Made by a program: the position numbers and the translations under genes. From Ustilaginoidea virens (Eukaryota; Ascomycota; Sordariomycetes; Hypocreales; Clavicipitaceae): a stretch of 64,000 nucleotides of DNA. The stretch lies in NCBI RefSeq assembly GCF_000687475.1, contig NC_057319.1, positions 1,798,001 through 1,862,000 on the forward strand, given 5' to 3'. The notes under the pieces are model-generated. The model was given only the letters and a program-made list of their open reading frames with translations. It searched no databases and had not been told where the DNA came from. Of the stretch, positions 11,139 through 44,439 are shown piece after piece; position 1 is the stretch's first letter; each line of letters starts with the position of its first letter.

Positions 11139-11200
11139 TTTTTTCTTCTTTTTTACGGGACTTCTTTCTTTTATTCTAACGCTAGGATTAGCTATATTGC

Positions 11201-11213
11201 TAATCAGAGGGGG
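11201..11213 (+). promoter_or_regulatory. Polypurine tract of Copia-A1
   Basis: TAATCAGAGGGGG immediately before the 3' LTR; it primes plus-strand DNA in LTR elements. The identical string precedes the B1 3' LTR, and its complement is found in A2 and B2. Confidence 0.85.
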
Positions 11214-11941
11214 TGTTGAAATCAGCGCCTTTTTAGCTGTATTTTGGTACTGGTCTCGCTACCGTACGACGTCTCTATGTTGAGATATCGCGGTGGCTAT
11301 ACTAGGCGCTATGGTGGGGCATAGCGCCCCACAACGCCGATTACAGTGGGCCACAGCGCCGGTCACGGCACCGGTATAGCGACCTACAATCCGGCCATAG
11401 CGGCCGGTCACAGTGGGCCATAGGGCCTACAACAGGCGGCGCATTTCTACGGGATTACCAAATGGGCAAACCTTGCTAATACCAGCACTTTCGGCCTTCT
11501 ATATACAGTCACCCGCTATACCGGTCATTTACGGCAGACCGATATAGGGCTTCCGGCCCGTACGGCAGGCTGTTATAGGGCATCCGGCATACCGCTATAA
11601 GCCACTGGGCTTGGTTGGGTATGCACTAGGTAGGATATTAGGCATAGACTGGGCACGGTTGGGCAGACCGACTTTTCGTCGGGTTTTTCGCTATTTTTAC
11701 AGTTTTTCATTATTTTCAACTACTTTTTCAAGATGGTAGAAATATGCCCAAAATTCCCTCTTTCTAGCTAGAATAGTCACCAACAATCAGAATCAGATTT
11801 CCCTAACATCTTTGCTCTGGTCAACCTCTTGTGCGCTTTAAATCTTTAACCAGCTCTTTATTTTATTCTGCAACGCCTTATACGCCACTATCGGTACTTG
11901 GTATACTTTCTAACAGTGTTCTGAGTCACCATTTTGCAACA
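11214..11941 (+). repeat. Copia-A1 3' LTR
   Basis: 728 bp, the same length as its partner, ending GCAACA. Compared with the 5' LTR, differences in the palindrome block are CpA/TpA changes (for example CACAG against CATAG), and near the end TpG/TpA changes. Confidence 0.95.
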
Positions 11942-12510
11942 ACTATTATCTCTAAAAAGTTCTCTAGGAGTTCCTATATAGGTAAATCGTATCTTTTCTA
12001 TTTTATAAGTATATTGCGGTTCTACCCCTGACTTTAAGTATTCTTTATAGCTAAAATCTCTTCTACTTTATATTCCTTATATAGCTAATTAGAGTCTTAG
12101 GGTAGTATAAATAGGGGACTAAATTATATATTAATTATCTCTTAGTTTAATAGTAGGTTAGAAGCCGCTTATTCGACTAAATTAATATAGAAAATTAAGT
12201 AAATACCCTATAGGATATCGAGTTAGATATTAAGTAGAAACGGTATAGCTATAACCGTATATTTTATTAAAACCTAGTCAAGCTTCTTATAAGGCTAGTT
12301 TATCTTAATATTATATAAGGTAAGCTATACCTAATCCCTAACTTAAAAATATTCCGCCGGATAGCATAAACGGTTAATTATATCTTACTACCGCTATTAT
12401 ATAAAGGCAATAGCGGCTTAGGCTACTTCCTATCCCTTATAGAAAATAGCTAAAAATAGAGCGGCCTACCCTTTTAGGGTCGTTAAACTTAATATTATAT
12501 CTAAAGGCGA

Positions 12511-12619
12511 TGTGATGGACTGGCCCTAAGGCGACTGCGAATAAGCGTTAATGATATATATTAAATAGACTAAAGAGGAAGGGAAAGGATCCAAATAGGA
12601 ACCTTCTATCTAGTCTATT
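12511..12619 (-). repeat. Gypsy C2 3' LTR, distal half
   Basis: Begins TGTGATGGACTGGCC (reverse complement of the LTR 3' end). It stops at the Copia-B1 target CTATT and continues at 18007. The two parts together make 244 bp, equal to the LTR at 25266-25509. Confidence 0.9.
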
Positions 12620-13359
12620 TGTTAAAATCCTATAGTAGCCTACTAGGCTGCTGGCCTAATGCCCTACTGGCTTACTGACCTTCTAGTCCTTATACCGCCT
12701 CTTGGACTTACGGTAGTCTTACCAACCTTAGGCCTTTGCCTTTTACCTTAGGATTTTCAGTGGATTATTTACTGTATATCAAGTAAGGTAGGCCTTATTA
12801 AAAAAGGTGTGGCATTGCTAAATTAGCGTGGTGGGCCTACTAGTGTGGTGGCGGCCTACTAGTGTGGTGGCTAGTCCACTAGTGTGGTGGGTAGTCACTA
12901 GCGTGGTGGTTAGTCACTAGCGTGGTGGCTAATTACTAGTGCGGTGGTTAGGGTGGTTGGAAAGGCTGGATATAGTAGGGCTGCTGACGTATTATATACG
13001 TGGCATAGCGAGCATTACGGGGAGCTTTCTTACTGGCTACCTTGGATGCCTGGGCCCACCCCTCCTTCGTGTATATATAGGATAGCTTTTCCCTTTCTTT
13101 CTAGATAGTAGAAGGGCAGCACAATCGAGTTTGTTAATGCACTATATGCCTCTTAACTTCTTACCTTCCCTGCGTTTTCTGGTTATCTTATATTTGCCTT
13201 GCCTTTACACTTGCCTTGCTTTATAGCACTTGTATAGTCTTAGGACTTGGTGAAAAATCTAGTATTTATACTAAGATTAGTTCACAGGTCGCAGACAGTC
13301 TTGTGCCATCTAGCTAGCTAGTAAGGCTTTGCTTTATAGTAACCTTAAGAATTGCAATA
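12620..13359 (+). repeat. Copia-B1 5' LTR with an internal 17-20 bp minisatellite
   Basis: 740 bp, TGTTAAAATCC to GCAATA. At about 12825-12955 it holds seven units close to TAGTGTGGTGGCTAGTCAC. Copy number of this array explains the different lengths of the B LTRs in the window. Confidence 0.95.
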
Positions 13360-13374
13360 GGTTATGAGCCCGGG
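13360..13374 (+). promoter_or_regulatory. Primer-binding site of Copia-B1
   Basis: GGTTATGAGCCCGGG directly after the LTR, complementary to the initiator tRNA-Met anticodon arm (15 bases with the extra G). This is the best match to the tRNA among the four copies. Confidence 0.8.
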
Positions 13375-13519
13375 TTTTACTTCTTTATTTTTACCCTACC
13401 TCTTTTGTGTTCACCCCTTGGTCTCTCTTGCTTATTAGTACTACTAATATAGCTATCCTTTGGTATCCTTGGCTTACCCTTATCACCTTTGGCTTACCCT
13501 TTGTTACCTACGGCATTAC

Positions 13520-13920
13520 CCTGCGGCAATCAACGGCGTACCCCTACGGCAACTTACGGCGTAACCTCACGGCATTTTTAGCGTAACCTTACGTTATTTT
13601 CGGAGTAACCTACGGCACCTACGGATTTTATAGTGTGATATCTATCACACTATACCACTGTATAATATCTTTACACCTAGTGCACGACACCTACTGCACT
13701 ATACGGCACCTGTTATACTCTTCCACTTATAGCACTTTTGGTACGGCACTTACGGCACCTTTTATATTACGGCACCTATAGCACCTACGGCACCTACGGC
13801 ACCTACGGCACCTACGGCACCTACGGCACCTATAGCACCTACGGCACCTACGGCACCTACGGCACCTACGGCACCTACGGCACCTACGGCACTTACGGCA
13901 CCTTTATATTACGGCACCAC
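13520..13920 (+). repeat. 9-bp tandem array (ACGGCACCT) in the Copia-B1 leader
   Basis: About sixteen near-perfect units between 13769 and 13911, preceded by looser ACGGC-spaced sequence from about 13520. The unit is a multiple of three, so it also reads as a Gly-Thr-Tyr repeat, but it lies between the PBS and the gag ATG and is probably untranslated. B2 has a much shorter and more degenerate version. Confidence 0.85.
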
Positions 13921-14155
13921 ATAAGCACCTTATATACTAACGCTATATTCTGGACTTGCACAACGCCTACGGCATCTGTGCTTTTATACTGAGACCTACC
14001 GCTATATTCTGCGGTTACCTTTTATAGTAGGCTACTAGCCACTATATTTACTAGCTGTCCAGCTAGTTACTCGACTATTTTGCCAGCTATTTAGCTGGTT
14101 ATTCATCTGTTCCTACAGCTATTGGCACCATTTTTAACGACTTTTAACCACTATA

Positions 14156-17140
14156 ATGGCACAGTCTAGGCCTTCCACTTATAAGGCCACTTTGGATTCC
14201 AACTCTAAAGCTGATCTTACTGCACGACTACAGCTAGATATGGACTATATAAAGTCCCAGATGAATACCCTAACTACCCTTATACAAGGCTTAGTTAGTA
14301 GGCAAAATAGTAACGTTCCTACTATTACAATTAGCAAGGAACTAGTAGAGGCTACTAGCCCTACTATCTCCGGTCCTACTAATATGAACAGTAAGGACCC
14401 TGTAGAGGCTACTAGCCCTACTATCCAACCTTCTGCTATTACGACTAGCAAGGACCCTGTAGAGGCTACTAGCCCTACTATCCAACCTTCTGCTATTACG
14501 ACTAGCAAGGACCCTATAGAGGCTACTAGCCCTACTATCCAACCTTCTGCTATTGCAACTGGTAAGGAACCTGTAGAGGCTACTAGCCCTACTACCAACT
14601 CTCCCGCTATTACGACTAGCGAAGAGCCCGCTATTACGACTAGCGAAAATCCCGTAGTGGCTACTAGCCCTACTCCTGCCCCTATAGCTGCTGATACAGA
14701 ATATCAGAAGCTATTACAGTTAGCCGGCATTTGGCATGTACGGCTAGGGCATATAGGTATTTAGCTACTTAAAAAGACCTGTGCTAATACCCCTGGTCTT
14801 CTTAACCTTAATAAGGTTAAAGATGCTGATTTTCGCTGCCTAGCTTGTATTCAAGCTAAGAAGGTTAGAAAACCTTCTAAAGATACGATACCTAATCCAG
14901 CTAAATGCCTGGATATTATAGAAGGTGATACTTTTGCTATATCACCTATGCCATACAACAAACGACCTATTGCCCTTATATTAGTGGATAGAAAATCCCG
15001 ATTCCGTTGGCTTTACTTACTGCCTAATAGGGAAGGCACTGTTGTTTTTAAAGCATTATAGAGCTTTATATAGAGCCTACAGGTCAGATATGGTAAAACG
15101 CCTGTTGAATTCCACTATGATGGTAGAAATAAAATCAATAAAATGCTTAGTGATTGGCTTATCGAACAGGGTATAACTTTTAATATATCTTGCCCCTATA
15201 TTTACGAACAAAACGGCCTAGCTAAGCGGTCTATTAGGGTTATAGCTGATAGGCTACGTGCTACTATGGCCTGTTCAAGGCTACTATCTAACCTTTGGTC
15301 TGCTGTAATTACTGGCGTTATTATGCTAGTAAATATAACAGCTGTTACTAACAGACCTTCTAGCCCCTATTAGGAGCTACTAAAGGATTACGACCAGATA
15401 ACACCGGAGTACTACCCTGACCTTATTAACCTTAGGGCTATTGGAGCAGCTATTGAAGTGCTTATACTATACGAAAAGCGTGTAAAAAGCCGCAAATTAG
15501 CGCCCTATACTAAGCCTGGTAGGCTCTTTGCCACTCTAGGTAATAATACTTACCTAGTCTACCTTCTAAATAAGAAGGTTGTTACTAAAATAACCTTTAT
15601 TACCTTTATCCATCAAAATGAAGGTATAGGCCCTATTTCTAGTGGCCTAGAAGGAGACTTTCACAAAGGGCAAAATACAGGTTCAGAGGGGGTATTTAGC
15701 AGTAAAGAACCTGCTATTTTACTAGATGACCTAGAAAGCATTCCTGACCCTACTAACTCTGTTAACCTTACTAGCATTACTAGCACTAATGCTATACCGG
15801 ATGACCTAGAAAGCATGCCGGACCCTACTAATTTTACTAGCATTACTAATGCTACCCCGGATGATATTACTAATACTAATGCCACCGTGGATTACCTTCC
15901 TAAGTCAGAAGACTTTATAGGCGCCTTTCTAAATAGCGAACTTTCTGAGACTATTTATATGGATATTCCTAATGGATTCCTTGAATTTACGGAAAGTTTA
16001 CTAACTGATAGTAAGCTTTGGTCTAATATACAGCGCTAACGGCTACTAACTTTGCTTAAAGAAGCTGTATTTAACCCTTCTATTAAGCAAGCTATCTTGC
16101 TAAAGAAGGCCCTATACGGGCTAAAATAAGCACCCTGTAAATGGCAATACCGGCTAAAAGACCTGATTTCTAGTGAAGGTTTTTTACTTTTAGCTTCTGA
16201 TGCTGCCGTCTTTTATAATAAGCAAACCAGCACCTTTATCGTCACCTATGTTGACGATTGCCTATTAGTTGGTCCAAATATAACTTATATTAACCAGCTA
16301 AAAAGGAAATTCCATAAGGTCTATGCTATAGAAGACCGCGGTCCGGCTTCCTTCTTCCTAGGCGTACAGATTATACGAAATAGGAAGGAAGGTCTATTGT
16401 GGCTACACCAAGCCCAATTTATAGCAGAGGTCTTAGCTAAATTCGGCTTACAGGATACTAAACCTCAGCTAATTCTACTTTAACTAGGGATTCTAAATGA
16501 ATCTAGTGGAAAAGACCTTAGCCCTACTGATCAGAGCCTTTATCAGAGCCTTACTGGCACTATAATGTGGCTTATGATGATGACTAGGCCCGACCTAGCA
16601 TTTCCTACCTAATACCTCTCTCGGTTTATGTCTAAGGCAACTAATGTGCATTTAAATGCTGCGAAAGGCAGCTTTAGCTACCTTAAAGGCACTGAGAACC
16701 TAGCTATTTGCTTTACTAAAAGCAATCAATAGCCTATTATAACCGCTTATTCTAATAGCGATTTTGCTGGCTGTAAAGAAACCTCTAAATCTACTAGAGG
16801 CTTCCTTACTACTATTAATAGTGGTCCTATTAGCTGGCGTTCTAAGCGAGCCTCTTTAGTAGTACTATCTACTTTAGAAGCTGAATCCGATGCATTACTT
16901 GAGACTATCCGTGAAGTACAGTGGCTTTTTAACCTTTGTAAGGAGCTGGAAATTGATATTCATGCTCGCACTAAGCATACGCTATTAAAATTCCGGTATA
17001 TTAGGGAGCAAGCCTAGCTAGGCTTGGTTAAAATTACCTACTTACCTACTAATAGTATGCCTGCTGACGGCCTTACTAAGCCACTGCCGGGCCCTAAATT
17101 TACTAGGTTCCGCGAGTTACTAGGTCTTAGGGCCTGCTAA
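14156..17140 (+). pseudogene. Copia-B1 deleted gag-pol polyprotein, one frame with RIP stops
   Basis: 995 codons (stop included) in one frame from ATG 14156 to TAA 17138-17140, broken only by about ten TAG/TAA. Segments: gag N-terminus (MAQSRPSTYKATLD, coiled); repeats of KDPVEATSPTIQPSAITTS; the integrase zinc part (WHVRLGHIGI) and core (DRKSRFRWLYLLP); integrase C-terminus; RT from FIGAFLNSE through the intact TYVDDCLLVG (YVDD at 16247-16258); RNase H ending FRELLGLRAC. The gag domain, protease and first part of RT are absent. Five stops can be checked against B2, where the same positions are Gln: HIGIQ, LQPGI, FPTQ, NQQ, EQAQ. All are CAR to TAR. No frameshift was found. Confidence 0.9.
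14337..14690 (+). repeat. 57-bp coding repeat in Copia-B1 gag/linker
   Basis: Unit KDPVEATSPTIQPSAITTS (19 residues, 57 nt), three close copies and about three variant or partial ones. B2 has about two upstream of its protease segment and further partial ones downstream, so the array flanks the place where B1 lost the gag domain and protease. Deletion by slippage or template switching between repeats is the simple explanation. Confidence 0.85.
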
Positions 17141-17248
17141 CTTATACTAACATACTTTTACTAAGGTTTTTCTTATGTTTTTCCTTAGCACTTTTTACTG
17201 CATTTTCTTTCCCTATCCTTTACACGATTAGCTTGCTACTACAGTAGC

Positions 17249-17261
17249 TAATCAGAGGGGG
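17249..17261 (+). promoter_or_regulatory. Polypurine tract of Copia-B1
   Basis: TAATCAGAGGGGG next to the 3' LTR, the same string as in Copia-A1. Confidence 0.85.
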
Positions 17262-18001
17262 TGTTAAAATCCTATAGTAGCCTACTAGGCTGCTGGCCTA
17301 ATGCCCTACTGGCTTACTGACCTTCTAGTCCTTATACCGCCTCTTGGACTTACGGTAGTCTTACCAACCTTAGGCCTTTGCCTTTTACCTTAGGATTTTC
17401 AGTGGATTATTTACTGTATATCAAGTAAGGTAGGCCTTATTAAAAAAGGTGTGGCATTGCTAAATTAGCGTGGTGGGCCTACTAGTGTGGTGGCGGCCTA
17501 CTAGTGTGGTGGCTAGTCCACTAGTGTGGTGGGTAGTCACTAGCGTGGTGGTTAGTCACTAGCGTGGTGGCTAATTACTAGTGCGGTGGTTAGGGTGGTT
17601 GGAAAGGCTGGATATAGTAGGGCTGCTGACGTATTATATACGTGGCATAGCGAGCATTACGGGGAGCTTTCTTACTGGCTACCTTGGATGCCTGGGCCCA
17701 CCCCTCCTTCGTGTATATATAGGATAGCTTTTCCCTTTCTTTCTAGATAGTAGAAGGGCAGCACAATCGAGTTTGTTAATGCACTATATGCCTCTTAACT
17801 TCTTACCTTCCCTGCGTTTTCTGGTTATCTTATATTTGCCTTGCCTTTACACTTGCCTTGCTTTATAGCACTTGTATAGTCTTAGGACTTGGTGAAAAAT
17901 CTAGTATTTATACTAAGATTAGTTCACAGGTCGCAGACAGTCTTGTGCCATCTAGCTAGCTAGTAAGGCTTTGCTTTATAGTAACCTTAAGAATTGCAAT
18001 A
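17262..18001 (+). repeat. Copia-B1 3' LTR
   Basis: 740 bp. Reading it against 12620-13359 I found no difference, including all seven minisatellite units and both homopolymer runs. Confidence 0.95.
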
Positions 18002-18141: not shown

Positions 18142-18579
18142 TACCCCCCTCCTCCTCCTTAGAGTCGGAAGAATAAACCATCTAAAGTTATCTCCTTTAT
18201 ATATCGCCCCCCAATTAAAACCTCTTATAGCCCTCAAAAATAACCTCAATTAGATATATAGGATATCAATCGGGCGTATAGATATACTAATATATAACCG
18301 ATATAAATATAGTAGGGGCTAAAGTCGGTATACTTTAGGCAGACGTAATAGAATCCTATCGAAGCCGGTCGTAATACTATCAGCTAGAAGGAATAGTATT
18401 GCAGCTATCGCAGAGCAGAAAAAATTTTATCGCTAGCCGTTAATTAGGAATCTATCTACACTAAGGCTTCTTCCTTTATCTACTTCTCTTTTATATTTCT
18501 TTCTCCCTCTCTCTATCCCTATGCCTACTATTACTAAGGCTATTACTCCTAGTAGTAAGTCTACAGTATTACTACCATC

Positions 18580-20100
18580 GTAAGAATCGTCCCTACTAAT
18601 AGAGTAGCACTATCGAAAGTTCCTAGATCGTTTATATCGGGTCTACATAATAAATCGTCCGGTACTAATAGGTATTTAGGTCCCCCCCCTGTTTGCTATT
18701 ACATCGGATTTGTCGCTATATTATTTAGAGGACTAATAGATAGGAATATACCTATCGCCTAGGACTCTCCTATAACCCTATTAGGTCTATCCTAAGCATC
18801 TACTAAAGGCTCTAGAGGTGCTAGGCGCAGAGGAGGTTCCTAGCTAGAAATGCCATCGCAGCCGCTATAATTTATACCCTCCTCGGGATAATCGTATAGT
18901 TCCCCCCCTAGCTTTAAGCTTATTATTATTTCTAATAATAATAAGAGTTTAGTAGAGCCTTAATTGCCTAATGTAGGGGCTTTATCGTCCCCTTTATATC
19001 TTCCCACCCCTTCTTATAAAGGAGTCCTATTATTAATAGGGGTGATACTAATAAAAACTTCTTCTTTAATGGCTATTACCCCTAAAACCCTATTAAGAGT
19101 AGCATTAGCTCCCTCCTTATTTATAATTATACTCCGAATACCTTTACATATTAAGAAAATACTGCTTTTGCCTACTACTAGATCGTTATATTAGCGGTTA
19201 CGAAAGAAGCATACTATAGGAGAGTTCTTCATCTAAAGGGATTCTAAAGGATTAAGTACTAATAATATTAAGGAGGTAGAGTATGCTTATATCGCCTGCA
19301 TATAGTATACTATAGATACCGGAGAATATATCGTCTATATACAGTCTAGTCGCTCCTAGGCTTATATTCAATACCATCAGAAATATAAAATATACATTTA
19401 GTGCAAGCATATAATATCGATAAATCCTTAATTGCGGTAGGTAATAAAATATATCGTCCGTATAGTATAAAAGGAATAAAGCATTAAGGAGGCCGCCCAT
19501 CTAAAGATAGGAGATTCCTAGGCCGGAAGGCCCGTCTTCGCCTTAAGTTTAATATACTATATCGTTAATAGGATAAACTATAGGCTATAGCGCAAGAGTA
19601 TATTATAACGGCTTTTTCCGTATATACCCTAGCTGCTAATATCGGCGGGTCGACTCCTGCTATACCTATAATAATTATTATTCCTTTTGCTTCGACTATT
19701 AGGTCCCGATAGGCTAGCGGCAACTCTATAGCACTTATTATATAACTGCTTATAAAGCAACGATAAGATATATAAATTATTGCAGAGGCAATAACCAGCT
19801 TTATATATTAAGTCACCCCTGCTATGCCTACGCTTTATACTCTGCCTACTTCCCCTTAGTTAGTATCCTCCCTATATGCCGGTATAGCCTTACCTTAGGC
19901 CCCTATACCGCCTATTGCGCCGCAAGCTAAGGCTAGTTCTATTACTATTAGCCTAGTATTATAAGTATATTCCCCTGGACCTATTACGCCCTATTATAGG
20001 TACCCGAGCTATACTATACCTAATTAGTATCTGCCGATTATGCCGCTAATACAGCCGCTACCTTTCCTGCCTTACTATCCTATAGTCCCCCCCCTGCCCC
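18580..20100 (+). pseudogene. Antisense Cys-motif ORF of gypsy C2
   Basis: Located between the chromodomain and the 3' LTR, opposite to gag-pol. Frame 1 carries NKSSGTNRYLGPPP near 18650, an open stretch at 18964-19194, and at 19288-19395 the motif Y-x2-C-x12-Y-x8-Y-x2-Y-x6-Y, which is C-x2-C-x12-C-x8-C-x2-C-x6-C if each Tyr was Cys. About ten residues later come a NPQLRQVI-type segment and IKEAAHLKIGD (TAG read as Gln). An upstream ATG at 18521 after a pyrimidine-rich run is in another frame, so a small indel or an intron would be needed to use it. Likely a zinc-binding protein of unknown role; similar Cys clusters occur in fungal regulators. Confidence 0.55.
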
Positions 20101-20369
20101 TATATGCCCCCCTACTAAATCCTATAGGTAGGCAGGGGAATACTAATAAGGGTGAGGGTAATAGGGGCAGTAGGAATTAAAAAATATAGGAATAGGGCTA
20201 GAGTTACTAAAAAATAAAAAATAAATACCGAAATTTACTAGATTACTTTACTAGAAAGGAAAAGGATTAGTATTTTTTTTTTTTATATCATTAGACGATA
20301 TTAAGGTTATAGGTCTAAAATCCGATCCTAAGGCCGTATAGGTCTATTATATATCTAAATATCCCCCTA

Positions 20370-23300
20370 TTTAGCTTTAAATGCCTCTTATATTGCTATC
20401 TCTAAAAAGTTCTCTAGGGGTTCCTATATAGGTAAATTATATCTTTTCTATTTAATAAGTATATCGCGGTTCTATCCCCAACCTTAAGTATTTTTCGCAG
20501 CTAAAATCTTTTCTACTTTATATTCCTTATATAGTCAATTAGAATCTTAGGGTAGTATAAGTAGGGGACCAGGTTATATATTAGTTACCTCCTAACTTAG
20601 TAGTAGGTTAGAAGCCGCTTATTCGACTAAATTAATATAGAAAATTAGGTAAATACCTTATAGGATATTAAGTCGAATATTAAGCGGGGATAGTATAGCT
20701 ATAACTATATACTTTGCTAAGACCTAGTCGAGCTTCTTATAAGGCCAATTTATCTTAATATTGCGTAAGGTAAGCTATACCTAATCCCCGACTTAAAAAT
20801 ATTCTGCTAGATAGTACGAACGGTTAATTATATTTTACTGCCTCTACTATACAAAGGCGATAGCGGCTTAAGCTACCTTTTATCCCTTATAGAGGGTGGC
20901 TAAAAATAAGGCTGCTTACCCCTTTAAGGTCGTTAAATTTAGTATTATATCTAAAGGCGATATAACTATTAGAATATTAAATCCATTAAAGAGCCGGTTA
21001 GGACTAAAACTAGTTACTAATAATATCCGGTTATTTAACGCTAGTTAGTATGCTATAAGGTATTTTGGCTAGTTATATTGGTTAAAGGAGACTATAATAC
21101 GTAAGATAGCCTAGACCTTTTAGTTTATCCATTCTATACTGCTATTAGTCTAGGGGTAATATATAGTCGAAAGGAGTTATTCGGTCCCAACTAAATTATA
21201 AAATATAGTCTAAAATTATCTTATCTAGTTAGATCCTCAGTCGCTAATAATTTCTTTAGGGAACCTATAGAAATACTACTAGTACTATTAGAACTATTCT
21301 ATATAGTCTTTTGCTTTTATAGAGTATATTGCCTTAAGCTAAATATACTTCGATAGGCGATTAGTAATAACTATAAGGAATCGCGGGTTAGATATATTGC
21401 ATATAAGAAGATCTATTATAAAGTCGATGGAAATCTATAATTAAAATCGGTCTAGGATAGGTAATAGCTACAATAGGCCCTAGCGCAATTATCGGCTTTT
21501 ATATGCCCTACGGCATTAGCAATTCCGGATATATCTTACTACTACTAAAGATATATTATTAAAGTAGTAGTCTCGATATAATAATTAGAATATAGTATTC
21601 TTCCTTAGATAGCCTATAATAGGTAATTTATAGTATCGCTATATAACCGTAGTAGTTAGGGGTTTAAAAGAAGGGAGCTATATCTGCCCCCAATAGAGAA
21701 GCGTACTATAGGCATTTAGGGTATAATTTATAATTTATTCCCTTATCGAAGCCTCGGTTAGAAAGCGTCTCTTACCTTTTACTACTATTACTTAGTATAC
21801 CCTATACGTTTTATCCTCGGCTATAGCCTAATCCTAAAGTGCCTAGAGGTAGGAGTTAGCGAAAATACGCAAGCTATTAGGTAAGCTAAATCCTAAAGGT
21901 ATAGTTATAGGAATCGGTTCGGTAGTTAAGTCTAAGTAGAGTATTAAAATTAATAGTAGTTTTAAAATCTAGCTAATCTTTAGTGTTATACTACTAGCTT
22001 CTTATTCCTATTGAGATAGCGCATTAGGGCATTAAGCCTGCGACTTTAGCTTATACTAGAGATAGAAATTAAAGAGTACTAATATTTCGGCCTATTTGGC
22101 CTACTATTTTAATATCTTACGGGGTCAAGCAAAGTACTTTAGATTCTTATAGTCTATAAGAATAGTAAATAGGGAGGCTACTAATCGGAGTTTAGTTAAC
22201 TATACCTTAAAATAAGAAATAATAATAAGAAGCTCTTTATTATAAATTATATAATTCTATTTAGTATTTATTAGGCGTGCGGAATAGTATATAATAGGGT
22301 GGAGGACTCTATCCTCCCTAATTTAAGAGAGGTAGCTACTAAAAATAGTACTAAAGCTATCTACTTTAAGAATCGTCTTTTTATTAGGGTCCTATTAAGC
22401 GAGAACCAGGTATAAGATAAAGTAATACTTAAGTGCTTAGAATGCTTTTTCTTCTTTATCTAACTATTAGAAAGGAATCCCTTTTTTTATTAATTTAACT
22501 AGGGGTTCGGCAAATTAAGAGAAGTTAAGGATAAATTTACAGTAAAAATTTATAAAGCTAAGGAAGCTTTAGACCCCTTTTAGTTTTATAAAGGCTTTTT
22601 AGTTCTAAATAGCCTTAATCTTTTTAGGGTTTAGGCAGATCTCTTTTCCTACTATTATAATATAACCTAGATAATAGACCTCTATTATAGCAAAATCACA
22701 CTTCTTTAAGTCTAGGTTAAGACTAGCATCCTAAAGTTATCGAAGTATATCTTTAACGCATCTTATATAGTCCTTTTGCAATCCTAAGGTATAAATAAGA
22801 ACGTTATTAAGGTATATAGTCGCAAAATCCCTAAGTATATTTCCTAAGGCCCTATTAATATATCGTTAGAATATTACAGGAGCTTTAATAAGGCTAAAAG
22901 GTATAATAAGCTACTTAAAGAGGCCGAATCATATGCGAAATACAATAAGGTATTTATCGCCTTCTATAATATAGATTTTATAGAATACTATACGTATATC
23001 GACTTTAGTAAACTACTTTGCCTAAGATAAAGATTATAGGGTCTCTTTAATTAGCAAAAGGGGGTATTAGTCTTAAGCTATAACCTTATTTAGGGCTCGG
23101 TAATTTATATAAAAATACCACCCTCTATTCCCTTTTTTAGCTAGGAGGACTAAAGCTACCGCTAATAAGGAGCTTATTTAAATCTATCCCTTATCTATAA
23201 GGTCGGTTACCTATCTTTAAACCTTAAGAAGCTAGTCCTATAGCATATTATATAATAGGCCCTAAGGTAGGTCTAATATGCTTCTATTTAGGGCCTTCTT

Positions 23301-23990
23301 AAGCTGAATATAATAGTCTAATATACCCCGGTATAGAGGAAGGCTAAAGGCCTTTTCCTTATTAAATAGGTCGCTAAATTGCTATAACTCTAGAGGTAGT
23401 CCCTACGGCTTTTATAGAGATAGTATAGGGTCCTAATATAGCGGAAGCATAATACGGAGAATATATATTATCTCTTATAGGCTTATAGTAATAAAAGAGG
23501 TCGATTGGTCTTTAGAACGCTTCGCCTATTAGAATATACTATAGAAGACTGAACTAAGAATATTAACTATAGTGGGGCTAGACTATTATACTACTAATTC
23601 CTAGATAATAAGATTGCCTATCGCTTCGATTTATATCCAATATTATTTCGCTTATAATATAATATTATGGTATTTTATTTAAGGGAGACCTAAGATAATA
23701 TTATAGGTAAAGCCTAGGATCATATAAAGTATAACTATAGAAGGCCAGCTATCAATATTAATATCTATACGAACGATATATATAATAGAGGAAGTCGCTT
23801 TCTTATATTCCCCTAAATGGCTCTAAATCTCTACTGCTGTTCCGATTTTCCTGCATTATAGTAGGCAGATAGGTTAGAGACCTAACTATTACACCGTTTT
23901 TTCGCTTATAGCGCTATAGTAATTATAACCCGAGTCGATTAAGGTATTAATAAAAGTATAAGATTTATATAATATCGGTATTAAAAAGGG
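20370..23990 (-). pseudogene. Gypsy C2 pol: protease, RT, RNase H, integrase, chromodomain
   Basis: Reading leftward: protease near 23900; RT with DLKKCDFAIIEVYYLGYII (about 22730-22660) and the catalytic box YLNNVLIYT at 22803-22814, where Asp-Asp has become Asn-Asn; RNase H; an integrase C-terminus with NILIVISPLDIIL near 20960; and a terminal chromodomain at about 20510-20385 (ILIK*KRYNLPI*EPLENFLE). The chromodomain is the known targeting module of chromoviruses that bind modified histones. Stops are TAG/TAA throughout and the RT is catalytically dead. The domain order RT-RNase H-integrase identifies Ty3/Gypsy. Confidence 0.85.
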
Positions 23991-23999
23991 GTGCCTATC

Positions 24000-25010
24000 T
24001 ATACGTTTTATAATCTCTTTTATCTTTTTTATATAGGGTCCTTTTCGTAATCGATTAGGGTTCTAAGCGTATACTTTAAGCCCTTTTGCGAGATTAAGCT
24101 TAAAGGCTAGTCTTTTCCCTAAGAATTATCGCTACTATTATCCTTAGTGGCCTAGGAGTCTACTATAGCTATTTTAACTATTCCCAATCTGCAGGCCCTT
24201 TGCAAATAGCATTTCTATATATAGTAGGTAGAAGTATTATAATAAAGATAAAGGTCTTTCTCCTATCGCTCGTTAAAGACCTTTTATAAGACCTATTTAG
24301 CTATATATTGCTTACTCTTTAAAGTAAGTTGGTTAATACCTATTATCTATATATTACCTTCTGCGTCAATTATTATTTTATCGATTATAAGGAAGATTAA
24401 AGTAGCGCCTAATAGTTAGGCTAGTCTTAAGGTTAATAGCAATTTAATAATAGCAGTCGACTACTATATAGTAGTTATTACGGGAGATCCTAAGTCCGAT
24501 AATCTTATCGGCTATCCTAGTATTTAATATAGAATAAAGGTATTTAAGTTTTACTTCCTTAGGCCAGCTAATTCCTCCTATAAGCACTAGTTTTTCTTTA
24601 AATTAGATAAAGAAAGCAGCAAAAAGTTCTTTAGGGCTTTAGCATAAAGAGTGCTTAAATTTAGTAATCGCGTGGTCTTATTAATGCAGATCCTTAAAGA
24701 GATATTAGAGGTATTTAAAGAACTTCGCTATATTATAATTATAGGCCTCGCTATTCTTAAAAAAGGCTGCGATTTATAATTAGACCGTAGAAGATAGGTT
24801 TTAGAAGATAAATATCTACTATATCTTTTCGTCCCTAATAAAGTCCTTATCGACTTCAAGCTTATATTACATAAAGGTTCGCTAGGCAGTAAATATTATC
24901 TTTTTACCATTAAAGGGGTCCCCTATTAGGATCGGCTTACGCTTAGGTTGGGTATAAGCCATATCGAGAATAGTAGGGGGGATAGGTCTGCTCTATTGTA
25001 TTATTGGGAC
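24000..25010 (-). pseudogene. Gypsy C2 gag remnant
   Basis: Capsid-type frame on the minus strand, starting near the PRSDP.GDPFNGKK-like stretch (about 24930) and running through KVDKDFIRDEK, FFKNSEAYNYNI, LQYLFKDL and similar segments to a zinc knuckle near 24250-24190 (GLYLYYNTSTYYIQKC, that is C-x2-C-x4-H-x4-C after undoing RIP). It precedes the protease, as expected. C3 has the same layout at 37542-38620. Broken by TAG/TAA; the start codon is uncertain. Confidence 0.75.
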
Positions 25011-25265
25011 CGGTTGGTATTCCGGTTAGGGTTTACTCGCCTGCTCTATAAAATAAGCCTATAAAGAGTTTATCTACAATTGAATTTATTGTATACCTTC
25101 GGAAAGTTGCTGCATTTAGGTGTATATATTATATCGGGGGCGCTACTGCCCTGTGCCGTCTGCCCCCATCTTATTAGGCGCGCTTATTTTAATATTGTAT
25201 AATACTTGCATCATTAGTTCTATAATATAGAGTTATAATAGTAAGGCTAAGAGAGTCTATTTAAA

Positions 25266-25509
25266 TATAATAGACTGGCCCTAGGGCGACTGCGAATAGG
25301 TATTAATAATATATATTAAATAGACTAAAGAGGAAGGGAAAGGATCTAAATAGGAACCTTCTATCTAGTCTATTTATATCCCGATTATAATACGTATTGA
25401 AGTCCTAATATAGTCCCGTGACCCCGTCTATTGCCCTTCTTAGGCTAGACGCGGGCGCAGCCCGAGTCCTAGCCATATTGTGGCGCGGGCGTAGCCCGAG
25501 CCCGTGATA
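25266..25509 (-). repeat. Gypsy C2 5' LTR
   Basis: 244 bp on the minus strand, from TATCACGGGCTCGGGC (ancestral TGTCAC) to the end next to 25266. Adjacent internal sequence TTTAAATAGACTCTC matches that of C3. No primer-binding site to a known tRNA 3' end was recognised there. Confidence 0.92.
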
Positions 25510-25514
25510 GGCGA

Positions 25515-28500
25515 TATAACTATTAGAATATTAAATCTATTAAAAAGCCGATTAAGACTAAAACCAATTACTAATAATATCCGGTTATTTAACGCTAGTT
25601 AATATGCCGCAAGGTATTTTAGCTAATTATATTAGTTAAAGGAGACTATAATATATAAAATAACTTAGACCTCTTAGTTTATCTATTCTATACTGCTATC
25701 GGTCTAAAGGTAATATATAGTTAAAAGGAGTTATTTAATCCTAACTAAATTATAAAATATAGTCTAAAATTATCCTACCTAATTAGACCCTTAATTACTA
25801 ATAATTTCTTTAAAGAACCTATAAAAACGCCACTAGCACTATTAGAACTATTCTATATAATCTTCCGCTTTTATAGAATATATTACTTTAAGCTAAATAT
25901 ACTTTAATAGGCGATTAGTAATAACTATAAGAAATCGTAGGTTAGATATATTATATATAGGAAGATCTATTATAAAGTCGATGGAAATCTATAATCAAAA
26001 TCGGTCTAAAATAGGTAATAACTATAATAGGCCCTAGTATAATTATCGGCTCTTATATACCCTATAGTATTAGCAATTCTAGATATATTTTGCTACTGCT
26101 AAAGATATATTATCGAAGTAGTAGTCTTAATATAACAACTAGAATATAGTATTCTTCCCTAGATAGCCCGCAGTAGGTAATTTATAGTATCGCTATATAA
26201 CTATAGTAGTTAGGGGTTTAAAAGATAGAAGCTATATCTGCCCCCAATAGAGAAGCATACTATAGGTATTTAGGGTGTAATCTATAATCTATTCCTTTAT
26301 TAAAGCCTCGGTTGGAAAGTATCTCTCGCCTTTTACTACTACTTCCTAGCATACCCTATATATTTCATCCTCAGCTATAGCCTAATCCTAAAGTGCCTAA
26401 AGGTAAGAATCGGCGAAAATGCATAAGCTATTAAGTAAGCTAAATCCTAAAGGTATAGCTATAGGAACTAATTCGGTAGTTAAATCTAGGTAGAATATTA
26501 AGATCGATAGCAGTTTTAAGATCTAGCTAATCTTTAGTATTATACCGCTAGCTTCCTATTCCTATTGAGATACAGCATTTAGGCATTAAGCCTATAACCC
26601 CGGCCTATACTAAAGATAGAAATTAAAGAGTGTTAGTATTTCGGCCTATCTAGCCTACTATTCTAATATCTTATAGGGTTAAATAAAATATTCTAGATTC
26701 TTATAATCTATAAAGATAATAAATAGGGAGGCTACTAATTAGAGTTTAGCTAATTACGCTTTAAGATAAAAGATAATAGTAAGGAGCTCCTTATCGTAAA
26801 TTATATAATTCTATTCGGCATCTATTAGGCATATAGAATAGTATATAATAGGGTAGAGGACTTTATCCCCCCTAATTTAAGAGAGGTAGCTATTAAAAGC
26901 GGTACTAAAGCTATCCGCTTTAAGAATCGTCTTTTTATTAGGGTCCTATTAAGCGAAAACTAGGTATAAAATAAAGTAATTCTTAAACGTTTAGAATACT
27001 TCCTCTTTTTTATCTAACTATTAAAAGGGAACCCCTTTCTTTATTAATTTAATTAAAGGTTTAGCGAGTTGGAAGAAATTAAAAATAAAATCGCGGTAAA
27101 AATTTATAAAGCTAAGGAAGCTTTAGACCCCCTTTAGTTTCGTAAAGGCTTCTTAGTTCTAAATAGCCCTAATCTTTTCGGGGTCTAGGCAGATCTCTTT
27201 TCCTATTATTATAATATAATCTAGATACTAGACCTCTATTATAGTAAAATTATACTTTTCTAAGTCCAGATTAAGACTAGCATCTTAAAGTCATTAAAGT
27301 ATATTTTTAATGCATCCCATATAGTCCTCCCTCAATCCTAAAGTATAAATAAAAATATTTTTAAAGTATATAATCGCAAAATCGCTAAGTATATTCCCTA
27401 AAGCCCTATTAATATATTATTAGAATATTATAGGGGCTTTAGTAAGGCTAAAAAGTATTATAAGCCACTTAAAGAGGCCAAATCGCATGCAGAATATAGT
27501 AAAGTATTTATCGCCTTCTATAATATAGATTTTATTGAATGCTATATATATATCGACCTTAGTAAACTACTTCGCCTAGGATAAAGATTATAGGGTCTCT
27601 TTAATTAATAAGAGGGGGTATTAGTCTTAAGCTATAACTTTATTTAGGGCTTAATAATCTATATAAAAATACTACCTTTTATTCCCTTTTCTAGCTAAGA
27701 GGACTAAAGCTACTACTAATAAAAAGCTTACCTAAATCTATCCTTTATCTATAAGGTCGGTTACCTATCTCTAAACCTTAAGTAGTTAGTCCTATGGTAT
27801 ATTATATAATAGGCCCTAAGGTAGGTCTAATACGCTCCTATCTAAGGCCTTCTTAAGCTAAATATAATAGTCTAATATACCCCGGTATAAAAAAAGGCTA
27901 GAAGCCTTTTCCTTATTAAATAGGTTATTAAATTCTTATAACTCTAAAGGTAGTACCTATAGCTTCTACGGAGATAATATAGAGTCTTAATATAGTAGAA
28001 GTATAATATAGAGGATATACATTATCTCTTATAGGCTTATAGCAATAAAAAAGGTCGATTGGTCTTTAGAATGCCTTACCCGCTAAAGTATACTATAGAA
28101 GACTAAACTAAGAATATTAACTATAGTAAGGCCAGACTACTATACTACTAATTCCTAAATAATAAGATTGCCTACTGCTTTAATCTATATCTAACGTCGT
28201 TTCGCTTATAATATCACATTATAGTATTCCATCTAATGGAGACCTAAGATAATATTATAGGTAAGGCCTAGGATTATATAAAGTATAACTATAGAAGGCT
28301 AGCTATTAATATCAATATCTATATAAATAATATATATAATAAAGGAAGTCGCTTTTTTATATTCCCTTAAACGGCTTCGAATCTCTATTATTATTCTAAT
28401 TTCCCTATATTATAATAGGCAAATAGGTTAGAGGCCTAACTATTATACCGTTTTTTCGCTTATAGCGCTATAGTAATTATAACCCGAGTCGATTAAAGTA

Positions 28501-28560
28501 TTAATAAAAGTATAAAATTTATATAATATTGGTACTAAAAAAGGGTGCCTATCTATACGT
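25515..28560 (-). pseudogene. Gypsy C1 pol, main block
   Basis: Collinear with C2 pol, shifted by about 4560 bases. The block runs from protease (about 28450) through RT, RNase H and integrase up to the C2 insertion point; the integrase tail and chromodomain continue at 12510-11947 and 4391-4300. The RT box is YFKNIFIYT near 27360-27340, where C2 has YLNNVLIYT, so it has lost even more of the site. More TAG/TAA codons and more TA dinucleotides than C2 indicate an older copy or more RIP cycles. Confidence 0.8.
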
Positions 28561-28569
28561 TTTATAATC

Positions 28570-29620: not shown

Positions 29621-29642
29621 AGAGTTCATCTGCGATTAAATC

Positions 29643-37107: not shown

Positions 37108-37349
37108 TATCACGGGCTCGGGCTACGCCCGCGCCACAATATGGCTAGGACTCGGGCTGCGCCCGCGACTAGCTTAAGGAGTATCGGCACGGGGTCACAA
37201 GGGCTCGCTAAGGACTCAGCCCGTACTACGTACAGGCATAAATAGACTACTTAGAGGCCCCTATTCGGGTCCTCTTCCTTTCCTCCTTAGTCTATTTAAT
37301 ATATTCATTCGACGCCTATTCGCAATAGCCCTAGGGCCAGTCCTTTATA
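37108..37349 (+). repeat. Gypsy C3 5' LTR
   Basis: 242 bp, TATCACGGGCTCGGGC to CTTTATA (ancestral TGTCAC...TTTACA). It carries two hairpins of the form CGGGC-N3-GCCCG (the first at 37119-37131). Sequence TTTAAATAGACTCTC follows; no tRNA match was recognised, so the priming mode is open. Confidence 0.93.
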
Positions 37350-37541
37350 TTTAAATAGACTCTCTTAGCCTTGCTGTTATAACCTTATATTATAGAGCCG
37401 ATAATGCAGGCTATATAAGATATCGAGATAAGTACACCTAGAGAAACGGGTACAAATAACCCGAGACTATAATACTCCCGATGTAATATATATACCCGAG
37501 TGGAGTAACTCGCATTGGGGTTACAATAGATAGAGGCGTAG

Positions 37542-38620: not shown

Positions 38621-38639
38621 AAATAAATAGATAGATACC

Positions 38640-41600
38640 CCTTTTTAGTACTAATTTTATATAAATCTTATACTTTTATTAATACCTTAATCGACTTAAG
38701 ATATAACTACTATAGCGCTATAAGCGAAAGGATAGTATAACGGTTAGGCCTCTAACCTATCCGCCTACTATAACGCAGGGAAATCAGAATAATAGTAGAT
38801 ATTTAAAGCTATTTAAGAGAACGTAAGGTAATATATTCCTCTATTACCTATATCGTCTGTATAGCGATCGATATCGATAGATAGCTATCTACGGTTATAC
38901 TTTACGTTATCCTAGGCTTTACCCGCGATATTATCCTTAGGATGCCTTAGATAGAGCACTATAATATTATACTATAGGCGAAGCGATATTAATTAAAGAT
39001 CGGATCGGTAGGTAGCCTTATCGTTAAGGAATTAACGAGAAGGCAATAGGGTCTAACTATAGTAAATATCTTTAGCTTAGTCTTCTATAGTATACTAAAG
39101 CGGGCGAAATACTCTAGGGATTAATCGACTTCCTTTATTATAATAAGCTTATAAGAGATAATATGCATCTTTTGCGTTATACTACTATTTTATTAAGACT
39201 CCGCCTTACGATCGTAAGAGCTATAGGTGCTCCTAATAGAATTATAGGAATTCGCCGACCTTTTTAATAAGGAGAAGGCTTCTAATCTCCCTCTATACTA
39301 AGGTATATTAGACTACTATATCCAGCTCAAAAAGACTATAGATAAAAGCCAGCTAGACTTACTTTAGGGCCTATTATATAATATACTATAAGACTAATTA
39401 CTTAAGGTTTAAAGATAAGTAATTGACCTAATAGATAAAAGATAGATCTATATGAACTCCTTATTAGTAGTAGTACTAGTCCTACTAGTTAGAAAAAGGA
39501 ATAGTAGGTAGCATTTTTACATCGACTACTAGGCCTTTAATAAGGTTATAATTTAAAATTAATATCCCTTCCTTTTAATTAAAGAGACCTTGCGATCCTT
39601 ATCCTAAGCGAAATAGTTTACTAAGGTTAATATATATGCAGCGTTCTATAAGATATATATTGCAGAGGGCGATAAATACTTAACCGCATTTTGCATACAA
39701 TTCGGACTATTTAAATAGCTTATTATGCTATTTAGCCTAATTGGGGCCCCTACGACTTTCTAAAGATATATTAACGGGGCCTTAAGGAATACGCTAGGAG
39801 ACTTTATAACTGCCTACCTTAACGATATTTTAATTTATACTAGGGGAATAAAGGCGGACTATATAGGGCGCATTAAGGAAGTCCTTTAACGACTGCAAAA
39901 GGCCGGCTTAAATTTAGATCTTAATAAGTGCGACTTTGCAGTAAAGGAGGTCTAGTACTTAGGATATATTATAACGGCCGGAAAGGAAATCTATTTAGAC
40001 CCTAAAAAGATTAAAGCTATCTAAAACTAGGAAGCACCTACGAAATTAAAAGGCATTTATAGTTTCCTTAGTTTTACTAATTTCTATCGCGACTTTATCC
40101 CAGACTTCTTTTGCCTTATTAACCCTCTAATTAGGTTAATAAAGAAAGGGATTTTATTCTAATAGCTAAACGAAGAAAAGGCAGTATTTTAAGCGCTTAA
40201 GTAGTATTTTATATTATTTTCGGTTCTTACCTAATAGGACCTTAATAAAGAGATAGTCCTTAAGGTAGATAGTTCTAATACAGCCCTCGGCAGCTATCTA
40301 TCGCAAATTAAAGAGGATAGTATACTCCACCCTATTATATACTATTCCGCTCGCTTATTAGATATAGAATAGAACTATACTATATACGATAAGGAACTTT
40401 TTACTATTATCTCTTGCCTTAAGGTATAATTAGTAGAACTCTATTTAGTAGCCTCCCCCTTTATTATCCTTACTAACTATAAGAACCTAAAGTACTTCGC
40501 CCGATTATAAAAAATATCTAAATAATAAGCCCGATAGGCTAAAACTCTAGTGCTCTTTAACTTCTATCTTTAATATAGACTAAGGTTATAAGCCTAATAT
40601 CCTAATATGCTTTCTCAATAGGAATAAAAGGCAGATAAAGTAGAGCCACAAATCGGCTAGATCTTAAAACCGCTATCTATTTTAGCACTCGATATAAATA
40701 AAATAAAAGGCAAGATAATACCAACCTCGGCCCTATAGACTACCCTACCTTACGGCCTATATATCTTCGCCAACTCCTACCTTTAAGCTATTTAAGATTA
40801 AGCGATATCTAAAAATAGTATATATTAGGCCTAATAGATAGTAATTGCAAATAGGGAATAACGATTTCTAATAGAGGCGGCGATATAAAAATAAATTGCC
40901 GACTATACCCTAAATGTATATAGCATACTCTTTTACCGGATATAGGTATAGCTTCTATCGTTTAAGCCCTTAACCACTATAGTAATCTAACGCTACTATA
41001 ACTCGCCTATTGTGGGCCACCTAGGAAAAAACACTACCTTCTAACTATTACGACAGGATTATCACTTTAATAATATATCGTCTAAGGTAGTAAGATATAT
41101 TCGGAATTGCCAATACTGTAAGGTATATAAAAGCCGCTAATTGCGCCAGGGGTTATTATAACTGCTACTAATCGCGGACCGCTTTTAGTTATAAATATCG
41201 ATCAACTTTATAACCGACCTTCCTGCCTATAATACCTCTAACCCGCGATTCCTTATAGTTATTATAGATCGCTTATCGAAGTATATCTAGCTTAAGGCTA
41301 TATACTTAATAAAAGCAAAAGACTACGCAAAATGCTTCTAATAGTGCTAGTGGCGCTTTTATAGCTTCTCTAAGGAGATTATTAGCGATTAAGGTTTAGA
41401 TTAAATAGGCTAATTTTAGTCTATACTATGCAAATTAGTTAGGACCGAATAACTTTTATTAATAGCATACTACCCCTAAACTAATAGCGGTATAGAGCGA
41501 ATAAACTAAGAGGTATAGGCAATCCTCTATATTATAGTTTCCTTTAATTAGTACGATTAGCCACACTATCTTACAGTATATTAACTCGCATTAAATAACT

Positions 41601-42449: not shown

Positions 42450-43800
42450 TACTCTCTATCTCCCTAAGCCTCCTCCTATCCCTATGATAGCGCATAAGCT
42501 AATAACAGTAAAGGTCCTCGCGGGGTAAAGCGCATATATAGACTATACATTAGATGGGGATAGTTCCTTATACATCTACGATATAATAGAGTCTATAGGC
42601 TACCGTAAGGCAAATATAGTAAGGGTGCACTAAGAGACAATAAGACCCCTTAATAAAATAGGGCCGGGCAATACGGCATCTATAGCGGTAGCTATAATAA
42701 AGATAGCGAGGGCATAGGGGGCTATAGAGCGGGTTCTGCCTACTATTATAGGGGTTGCAATAGATAACCTTACGCTAATAGTAGTAGAGCCTCTATATAG
42801 TATTAGCCGCCCTAATCGTATAATAGTTCCCCCTCTATATAATATATAGGGAGGGCGGGATAAAATAAGGGCAGAGGTAGCTAGAGACGTTAAGCTCTAA
42901 CCTAATATTGCTCTATCTTAGCATAATATTCCCAGGCTTTTATTTGCATTTCCCTTATAATATTTAGTATAGGGGCGAGATCTATAACAGACCCAGCCTA
43001 GCACTAGGAGGGCATTAATACCGCAGATATAGTAGAAACTATACCAGAGGTATTTTATAGCCTAAATACCAAACGTAGGGCACAGGGGGCCACCTACTTA
43101 GCAGCGAAAGTATAATACTATTAATTATTTAAAGCCTAAAACTCGGGGGTTAAGATAGCGGTATATACTTTCTGCGTATCTATCTTTAGATAGGCGGGCT
43201 CTATAACGGCCCTCCCCTCCTTTACTGCCTTAATCTAATTGTATAGGATGCATTATAATATAGGGTTCCCCGCGAGATATTGATTAAGCTATACGCAAGA
43301 TACGTGGGAATTAGCGCAGCTTTTATACCCTTTTGCTTTTCTATAATGCTTATAAATAGATAACTCTCCGGTCGCTTATATACGTTTAGTGCATCTATTA
43401 TATAGGAACTTTTCATCTTTTATATATTAATACTCTTTATCTGAGGAGTCCCCCTCTAGAAGATAGTCATTAGTAGTACGGTATAGCTTCTAAAGATAGG
43501 TAGGATCTAATTCCCTCCTAATAGGGGCATTATTAGTAGTAGATAAAGATATATTTAGGTTCTATATAGGGTTAGCATAAAACGCTCGCGATATAAATAG
43601 GGACTTAAGACTTACTAATAGGCTTTATATATAGATTAGATCGGGTCTTACTACAAAAAGAGTTAGCAGCCGATTGCAAAAAAGATAGAATTCGGTAAGG
43701 AATACTAACGCAAAAGGGGCGGAAATAATATTTTAACCGATTAGTATATAATACGGGCTTAATGCGGGATAAAAACTTATAATAATAAAGACCTTCGATA
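42450..43800 (-). pseudogene. Antisense Cys-motif ORF of gypsy C3
   Basis: Opposite to gag-pol, in the same place as in C1 and C2. At 43402-43295 the minus strand reads Y-NR-C-x12-Y-x8-Y-KS-C-x6-C; with Tyr as mutated Cys the spacing C-x2-C-x12-C-x8-C-x2-C-x6-C is identical to C2 over 108 nt, although the residues between differ almost everywhere. Downstream IKAVKEGRAV...AYLKID parallels IKEAAHLKIGD of C2. A frame of 64 codons from 43416 is open in another phase. Conservation of spacing across diverged subfamilies argues for a former real protein. Ends are approximate. Confidence 0.5.
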
Positions 43801-44434: not shown

Positions 44435-44439
44435 TACCC

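What the first reader, a model, noticed from the sequence alone, without database searches (positions are those of the whole stretch)
18580..20100. Antisense six-cysteine ORF carried by all three chromovirus copies
Opposite to gag-pol, between the chromodomain and the 3' LTR, C1 (3289-3396 +), C2 (19288-19395 +) and C3 (43402-43295 -) each encode a 108-nt segment that fits C-x2-C-x12-C-x8-C-x2-C-x6-C, with Tyr in place of Cys wherever RIP hit. C2 keeps Cys at the second position. C3 keeps it at the second, fifth and sixth. The intervening residues in C2 and C3 are almost all different, so conservation of spacing is unlikely to be neutral. The pattern is close to the Zn2Cys6 cluster but with a long first loop. 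An accessory antisense gene with a possible DNA-binding protein is not a standard part of a chromovirus.
Basis: partly seen in the sequence, partly recalled or inferred. Interest (0 to 1): 0.8.

Follow-up and report, generated by a model that had tools for sequence, protein, structure and literature searches.

The report
Antisense six-cysteine gene in fungal retrotransposons
Several old, mutation-ridden families of jumping genes in a fungus carry, on the strand opposite to their main genes, the remains of one more protein gene with six precisely spaced cysteines, and mutation patterns show that this protein was kept by selection while the elements were alive.

Summary
In 39 aligned C1/C2-family copies and 30 C3-family copies, six Cys/Tyr columns with spacing 2-12-8-2-6 occur once per family over six frames each, at the stated sites. 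Two further families carry the same antisense frame; one raw copy, L071, has all six cysteines at this spacing with no stop in the motif. Transversions, which RIP cannot cause, pile up at third codon positions of the antisense frame: 27/26/82 between C3 and L071, 8/6/28 between L071 and L079. The sense frame sharing that wobble position has six certain TGA stops in the conserved part; the antisense frame has none. So this was a protein gene under purifying selection, convergent with pol. A sister family lacks it in all 40 scored matches, so it looks accessory. It is not Zn2Cys6 by spacing or Pfam; zinc binding and a nuclear role are inferred. Antisense genes here are known in plants and in Boty (brtn), so this is a variant of a known kind. 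Start codon, two invariant in-frame stops, expression, chromodomain and kinship with BRTN are unresolved.

The parts
18318..18560 (.). 3' LTR of element C2 (gag-pol on the - strand)
   Evidence: Start of homology of most C1/C2-family copies; the inner edge near 18560 is estimated from the LTR length at 25265-25509
25265..25509 (.). 5' LTR of C2
   Evidence: Matches the C3 LTR 44193-44435 at 73%
19201..19760 (+). Part of the C2 antisense gene that aligns with the C3 family; both ends of the gene are undetermined here, and C2 has a one-base frameshift near 19516
   Evidence: hhalign columns 214-400; no certain TGA in this frame; frameshift relative to 38 of 39 rows
19288..19395 (+). Six Cys/Tyr motif, C2
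3289..3396 (+). Six Cys/Tyr motif, C1 (all six Tyr)
   Evidence: row C1
42466..43624 (-). Antisense stretch of C3 between the certain TGA at 43627 and the fixed stop at 42466, open apart from TAA/TAG stops; third-position transversion excess runs about 43472-42513, weak in 42872-42633
43295..43402 (-). Six Cys/Tyr motif, C3
44193..44435 (.). 3' LTR of C3
   Evidence: Direct repeat with 37108-37350
37108..37350 (.). 5' LTR of C3
39524..39973 (+). Reverse transcriptase remnant of C3 (RVT_1)
   Evidence: G000:C4:1837524-1837973:+
40970..41137 (+). Integrase H2C2 remnant of C3; RT before IN is the Ty3/gypsy order
   Evidence: G000:C4:1838970-1839137:+

Best explanation
The stretch between pol and the 3' LTR holds the RIP-ruined remains of an accessory protein gene on the antisense strand, convergent with pol. 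Shown: the antisense frame was translated and under purifying selection, and its product had six cysteines at spacing C-x2-C-x12-C-x8-C-x2-C-x6-C, followed by a conserved region of about 200 residues and a Pro/Gln/Tyr-rich tail. Shown: four related element families carry it, and a many-copy sister family does not, so it is probably dispensable (help in trans from other families is not excluded). Inferred: it was transcribed from the 3' LTR side, the six cysteines hold zinc in a cluster-like fold, and the protein worked in the nucleus as a nucleic-acid-binding regulator of the element's own transcription or integration, as proposed for antisense genes of plant retrotransposons.
For: Of 36 frame pairs between the two families only the two motif frames match well (hhalign score 67.1, E 6.7e-8, 180 columns); the next is 40.7 (E 2.8e-4) for an opposite-strand pair and the other 34 score under 28. 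Transversions by antisense codon position: 27/26/82 (C3-L071), 27/22/78 (C3-L079), 8/6/28 (L071-L079), chi-square p 1e-10, 1e-10 and 3e-5; the same with DNA-only alignments in 5 of 5 pairs among families B, C and D. Certain TGA stops in 43472-42513: 0 in the motif frame, 3, 4, 6, 1 and 0 in the other five, the 6 being in the sense frame that shares the wobble; stops fixed in the family there: 2 in the motif frame, 8, 7, 13, 6 and 4 in the others. C1/C2 family: 0 certain TGA in 691 codons of the motif frame, 8, 4, 5, 7 and 6 in the others. L071 keeps all six cysteines. The C3 antisense profile hits 5 of 5 fetched C and D copies in the antisense frame at 202-250 bits. Family E has the pol-side block followed by the LTR within about 50-65 nt in L069, L072 and L074, and all 40 scored matches of 662 first-look candidates cover block and LTR.
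Against: Two in-frame stops are invariant: one two codons after the sixth Cys (39/39 and 30/30; 5/5 C and D copies) and one at 43120 (30/30 and 5/5). RIP saturation of Gln or Trp codons is likely, because codon-level conservation goes on beyond both, but it is not proven. In the C1/C2 family fixed stops do not single out the motif frame (23 against 24, 28, 51, 31 and 21). No in-frame start codon was found in the C3 family after the TGA at 43627. No homologue in the protein search, Pfam (39, 40, 50, 68) or PDB sequences (best E 0.6), and no control shows that the protein set holds fungi. AlphaFold2 of the 63-residue stop-free piece is poor (pLDDT 53.7). With the C1/C2 family against the others, position counts are near saturation (83-85/65-72/87-97; no signal with DNA-only alignment in 2 of 2 pairs). 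No RNA data.
Confidence: 0.8

Rival explanations
1. The pattern is an artefact: RIP makes Tyr and stop codons everywhere, and six Tyr columns at one spacing arose by chance in non-coding DNA.
For: RIP is near saturation at C before an invariant A (42 of 79 such columns over 90% T), and three of the twelve family columns show no Cys at all.
Against: 0 of 2000 shuffles per family; L071 has all six Cys; third-position transversion excess, which RIP cannot produce.
Confidence: 0.02
2. The sense strand codes here (a pol tail or env-like ORF) and the antisense signal is its shadow.
For: One sense frame has its wobble base at the same position (my derivation), and two of three sense-frame profiles also match C and D copies at 104-171 bits.
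Against: That sense frame has 6 certain TGA stops and 13 fixed stops within 43472-42513 against 0 and 2 in the antisense frame; the antisense profile scores higher in 5 of 5 copies. Another sense frame has no certain TGA there, but its wobble base does not fit the transversions.
Confidence: 0.02
3. The gene is a passenger: a host gene captured once by an ancestor of these families and kept without use to the element.
For: Family E does without it; gene capture is an origin discussed for plant antisense ORFs (PMC7264820, passages).
Against: Selection persisted through the split of three families with 55-71% DNA identity, which an unused passenger would not show. A host copy was not sought.
Confidence: 0.08
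4. The antisense gene chiefly restrains the element, through antisense RNA, dsRNA or a repressor protein, in the manner of a copy-number control.
For: Convergent with pol; such a role is discussed for plant antisense transcripts (PMC7264820, passages); the sister family without the gene has many copies (662 first-look candidates, LTR matches of other kinds perhaps among them; 40 scored).
Against: Codon-level selection shows that the protein matters, not only the RNA. Copy numbers here are lower bounds and not a fair comparison.
Confidence: 0.15

Closest known systems
brtn, antisense gene of Boty retrotransposons (Botrytis cinerea, Sclerotinia; Zhao et al. 2011, not held, known only from citing papers)
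   Same: Additional antisense gene in a fungal LTR retrotransposon (PMC7264820 and PMC8365987, passages); a Boty-like gag-pol has a CHROMO domain (PMC4227169, passage)
   Different: The BRTN sequence could not be compared; whether it has six cysteines is unknown to me
Antisense aORF-3R genes of plant LTR retrotransposons (Grande gene23, RIRE2, Retand, PvRetro13)
   Same: Between pol and 3' LTR, antisense, in most copies of a family, some products nuclear (PMC7264820, passages and section 7)
   Different: No cysteine motif is mentioned in the parts of that review that I read; domains named there are SMC-like and transposase 28
Fungal Zn2Cys6 cluster (PF00172)
   Same: Six cysteines in two triads; the second triad C-x2-C-x6-C matches (Zn2Cys6 spacing recalled)
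   Different: First loop 12 instead of 6 residues; no Pfam match in 15 rows
Retroviral and retrotransposon gag zinc knuckle (CCHC)
   Same: Short Cys-rich, presumed zinc-binding segment in a retroelement
   Different: Spacing and strand differ (CCHC spacing recalled)

Membership tests
Antisense additional ORF between pol and 3' LTR (aORF-3R) | Location between pol and the 3' LTR | tested here: met
   (RT and integrase lie on the far side of the stretch; the exact pol end was not determined)
Antisense additional ORF between pol and 3' LTR (aORF-3R) | Coding on the strand opposite to gag-pol | tested here: met
Antisense additional ORF between pol and 3' LTR (aORF-3R) | Kept in many copies of a family with protein-level conservation | tested here: met
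   39 and 30 aligned copies, chosen by this stretch, so copies without it were not counted
Antisense additional ORF between pol and 3' LTR (aORF-3R) | Antisense transcript | not testable with these tools
   No RNA data
BRTN of Boty | Sequence homology | not tested
   Paper and sequence not held
Zn2Cys6 binuclear cluster (PF00172) | C-x2-C-x6-C-x5-12-C-x2-C-x6-8-C (recalled) | tested here: not met
   First loop is x12 in all four families
Zn2Cys6 binuclear cluster (PF00172) | Pfam profile match | tested here: not met
   No PF00172 hit for any of 15 rows scanned; most rows are RIP-damaged
Zn2Cys6 binuclear cluster (PF00172) | Binds zinc and DNA | not testable with these tools
   -
Ty3/gypsy LTR retrotransposon | RVT_1 followed by H2C2 integrase between LTRs | tested here: met
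   C3:
Chromovirus | Chromodomain at the end of integrase | tested here: inconclusive
   PF00385: 7 hits in the genome, none near these copies; RIP may have erased it

The most novel reading that the evidence does not exclude
A retrotransposon-borne zinc-cluster protein, a long-loop cousin or forerunner of the fungal Zn2Cys6 domain, encoded antisense and acting on the element's own LTR as a nuclear regulator, in the way that antisense and accessory proteins serve some retroviruses.
Probability: 0.2. Interest if true: 0.8.

Novelty: new variant of a known kind. Interest (0 to 1): 0.55.

Why it matters
Antisense genes of LTR retrotransposons are known, but the review seen here says that their roles are not yet determined (PMC7264820, abstract passage). 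This case gives one with a clear cysteine signature, a RIP-proof demonstration of protein-level selection, and natural element families with and without the gene in one genome, so its effect on the element becomes a testable question. It also shows a way to recover selection from RIP-ruined DNA: count only transversions, by codon position, between families.

Tried and rejected
Stop-codon maps over the whole stretch were not informative: C before A is RIP-saturated and every frame is full of stops. I counted instead TGA codons for which no copy shows a sense alternative, made stricter (at least 90% of copies must have a stop); the stricter rule dropped one site each from two other frames, none from the motif frame.

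Within-family substitution tests were dropped: nearly all variation inside a family is C/T or A/G.

Motif scans for RT and integrase in the raw C2 and C3 frames were uninformative; family profiles settled the strand.

Homologue searches found nothing (in one search, 63 pattern matches, none confirmed). I spent no search on a control for fungal content, so this negative is weak. From memory, without a call, I recall fungal 'hypothetical proteins' with C-x2-C-x11/12-C-x8-C-x2-C-x6-C segments; a lead only.

AlphaFold2 of the stop-free 63-residue piece of L071 with three other raw rows was poor and was not used. SH3_Tf2-1 gave 11 hits that I did not match to these copies.

An upstream exon in another antisense frame of C3 (44081-43817) has a weak signal: 10/9/23 and 10/8/23 transversions against two C copies (p 0.013 and 0.008), nothing against two D copies. 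Not claimed.

Rows dropped: the codon test kept gapless rows only (4 of 10 B rows and 5 of 7 A rows named in the script; all 5 C and D copies).

Full report
WHAT IS THERE. The window lies in a 37-Mb genome of 8 contigs. Its repeats bear the marks of repeat-induced point mutation (RIP): within each family almost all variation is C/T or A/G, and C before an invariant A is mutated in most copies. Self-comparison gives element C3 at 37108-44435 with 243-nt LTRs, element C2 at 18318-25509, and C1 at 2320-4392 plus 11944-12516, split by another LTR element (4397-11939). In C3, RVT_1 (39524-39973, +) precedes integrase H2C2 (40970-41137, +), so C3 is a Ty3/gypsy element on the + strand; C2 runs the other way. 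A chromodomain was not found in the damaged copies, so 'chromovirus' is plausible but not shown.

THE MOTIF. I aligned 39 copies of the C1/C2 family (family A: C1, C2 and 37 of the 39 other places listed; two partial places were not fetched) and 30 of the C3 family (family B: C3 and 29 loci, of 42 rows listed). Columns that are Cys or Tyr in at least 90% of copies show the full six-column spacing once in the six frames of each family, at 19288 and at 43402, and in 0 of 2000 shuffles in either family. Within columns Cys survives in 5, 8, 10 and 5 of 39 copies (A: positions 2, 3, 5, 6) and in 6, 10, 14, 15 and 11 of 30 (B: positions 1, 2, 4, 5, 6); A positions 1 and 4 and B position 3 are Tyr in all copies. 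RIP turns TGY into TAY and not back.

TWO MORE FAMILIES. I took the stretch downstream of 8 of the first 12 RVT_1 hits. Two are family A (L070, L075), one (L071) is a new family C, three (L069, L072, L074) are a family E, and two (L073, L076) could not be placed. The antisense profile of B finds L071 at 250 bits in the antisense frame. L071 reads C-x2-C-x12-C-x8-C-x2-C-x6-C with all six cysteines and no stop codon within the motif. A genome search with L071 shows 18 pieces at 76% identity or more, 23 longer matches at 66-70% and 12 short pieces (lower bounds). Two more of the first kind (L077, L078) and two of the second (L079, L080: family D) were fetched; all four match in the same antisense frame at 202-241 bits. 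With these, each of the six positions has Cys in at least two families.

WAS IT A PROTEIN GENE? Three tests say yes. First, of 36 frame pairs between A and B only the two motif frames match well (score 67.1, E 6.7e-8, 180 columns). One opposite-strand pair scores 40.7 and the other 34 score under 28. The stretch itself is not aligned as DNA between C2 and C3; BLAST homology starts at 20232 and 42401. Second, RIP makes only transitions, so transversions between families are free of it. By codon position 1/2/3 of the antisense frame they number 27/26/82 (C3-L071), 27/22/78 (C3-L079) and 8/6/28 (L071-L079) over about 220 codons. Alignments made on DNA alone give the same in 5 of 5 pairs among B, C and D, and no signal in 2 of 2 pairs with A, which is too far. 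In C3 the excess runs from about 43472 to 42513, weakly in 42872-42633. Third, TGA codons for which no copy shows a sense alternative mark stops that RIP did not make from Arg or Trp codons. In 43472-42513 there are 0 in the antisense motif frame, 3 and 4 in the other antisense frames, and 6, 1 and 0 in the sense frames; the 6 are in the only sense frame whose wobble base would explain the transversions (my derivation). Stops fixed in the family there number 2 in the motif frame and 8, 7, 13, 6 and 4 in the others. In family A the motif frame has 0 certain TGA in 691 codons and the other five have 8, 4, 5, 7 and 6, although fixed stops do not set the motif frame apart in A (23 against 24, 28, 51, 31 and 21).

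PROBABLY ACCESSORY. In family E the block at the pol-side edge (20341-20388 in C2) is followed by the LTR after about 50-65 nt (L069, L072, L074). All 40 scored genome matches, of 662 first-look candidates, cover block and LTR (at least positions 11-361 of 369). E therefore multiplied without the antisense gene, unless helped in trans. One hit needs telling: an A profile matches one frame of L072 at 47 bits. A DNA match to the A stretch starts at L072 367, where the E LTR ends (369), so I read it as a fragment of a neighbouring element.

LIKELY FUNCTION. Two Cys triads with constant spacing through four families suggest a zinc-binding fold. The rest, about 200 conserved residues and a tail rich in Pro, Gln and Tyr, has no Pfam match and no PDB sequence match better than E 0.6. 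AlphaFold2 on the stop-free 63-residue piece was not usable (pLDDT 53.7). By analogy with plant antisense ORFs, some of whose products are nuclear (PMC7264820, section 7), I think a nuclear nucleic-acid-binding regulator of the element most likely. This step is inference.

POINTS AGAINST AND OPEN. Two in-frame stops are invariant: one two codons after the sixth Cys (39/39 A and 30/30 B rows; 5/5 C and D copies) and one at 43120 (30/30 B, 5/5 C and D). I read them as saturated Gln or Trp codons because conservation continues beyond both, but true stops or some recoding are not excluded. No start codon is visible in the B motif frame after the TGA at 43627. A weak second signal in another antisense frame near the LTR may be an upstream exon. 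Protein searches found nothing, without a control for fungal content.

WHAT IS KNOWN. Antisense genes between pol and the 3' LTR are described for maize Grande, rice RIRE2, Silene Retand and bean PvRetro13, and for Boty of Botrytis cinerea and Sclerotinia sclerotiorum (PMC7264820, passages); brtn is also named for BcGypsy1 (PMC8365987, passages). A Boty-like gag-pol with a CHROMO domain is described (PMC4227169, passage). The Boty paper itself (Zhao et al. 2011) is not held. In the search listings (two empty; titles and abstract starts seen in the others) I saw no report of a six-cysteine antisense protein; this covers open-licence papers only. I therefore call it a new variant of a known kind.

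Noticed in passing
window 20955-25509 and 25509-29647: The C2 body is followed at once by a second, 86% identical body in the same orientation, next to the LTR at 25265-25509: a tandem internal-LTR-internal arrangement.
   Followed up: no
window 4397-11939 and 12620-18001: Other LTR elements (LTRs about 726-740 nt) sit inside C1 and next to C2; the LTR pair 12620-13359 and 17262-18001 is 100% identical in an otherwise heavily mutated region.
   Followed up: no
window 14262-14628: A tandem repeat with a 57-nt period (five registers, 63-100% to the reference) inside the element at 12620-18001; an inverted 96% match of 14020-14423 lies at 32885-33288.
   Followed up: no
window 43291, 43120 and 19399; L071, L077-L080: In-frame stop codons that are invariant in every row seen: one two codons after the sixth cysteine in all four families, one more (43120) in families B, C and D.
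   Followed up: partly
window 44081-43817 (-): A second antisense frame near the C3 LTR has a weak third-position transversion excess against family C (10/9/23) and a stretch of about 400 nt without fixed stops (44015-43607): a possible upstream exon.
   Followed up: partly
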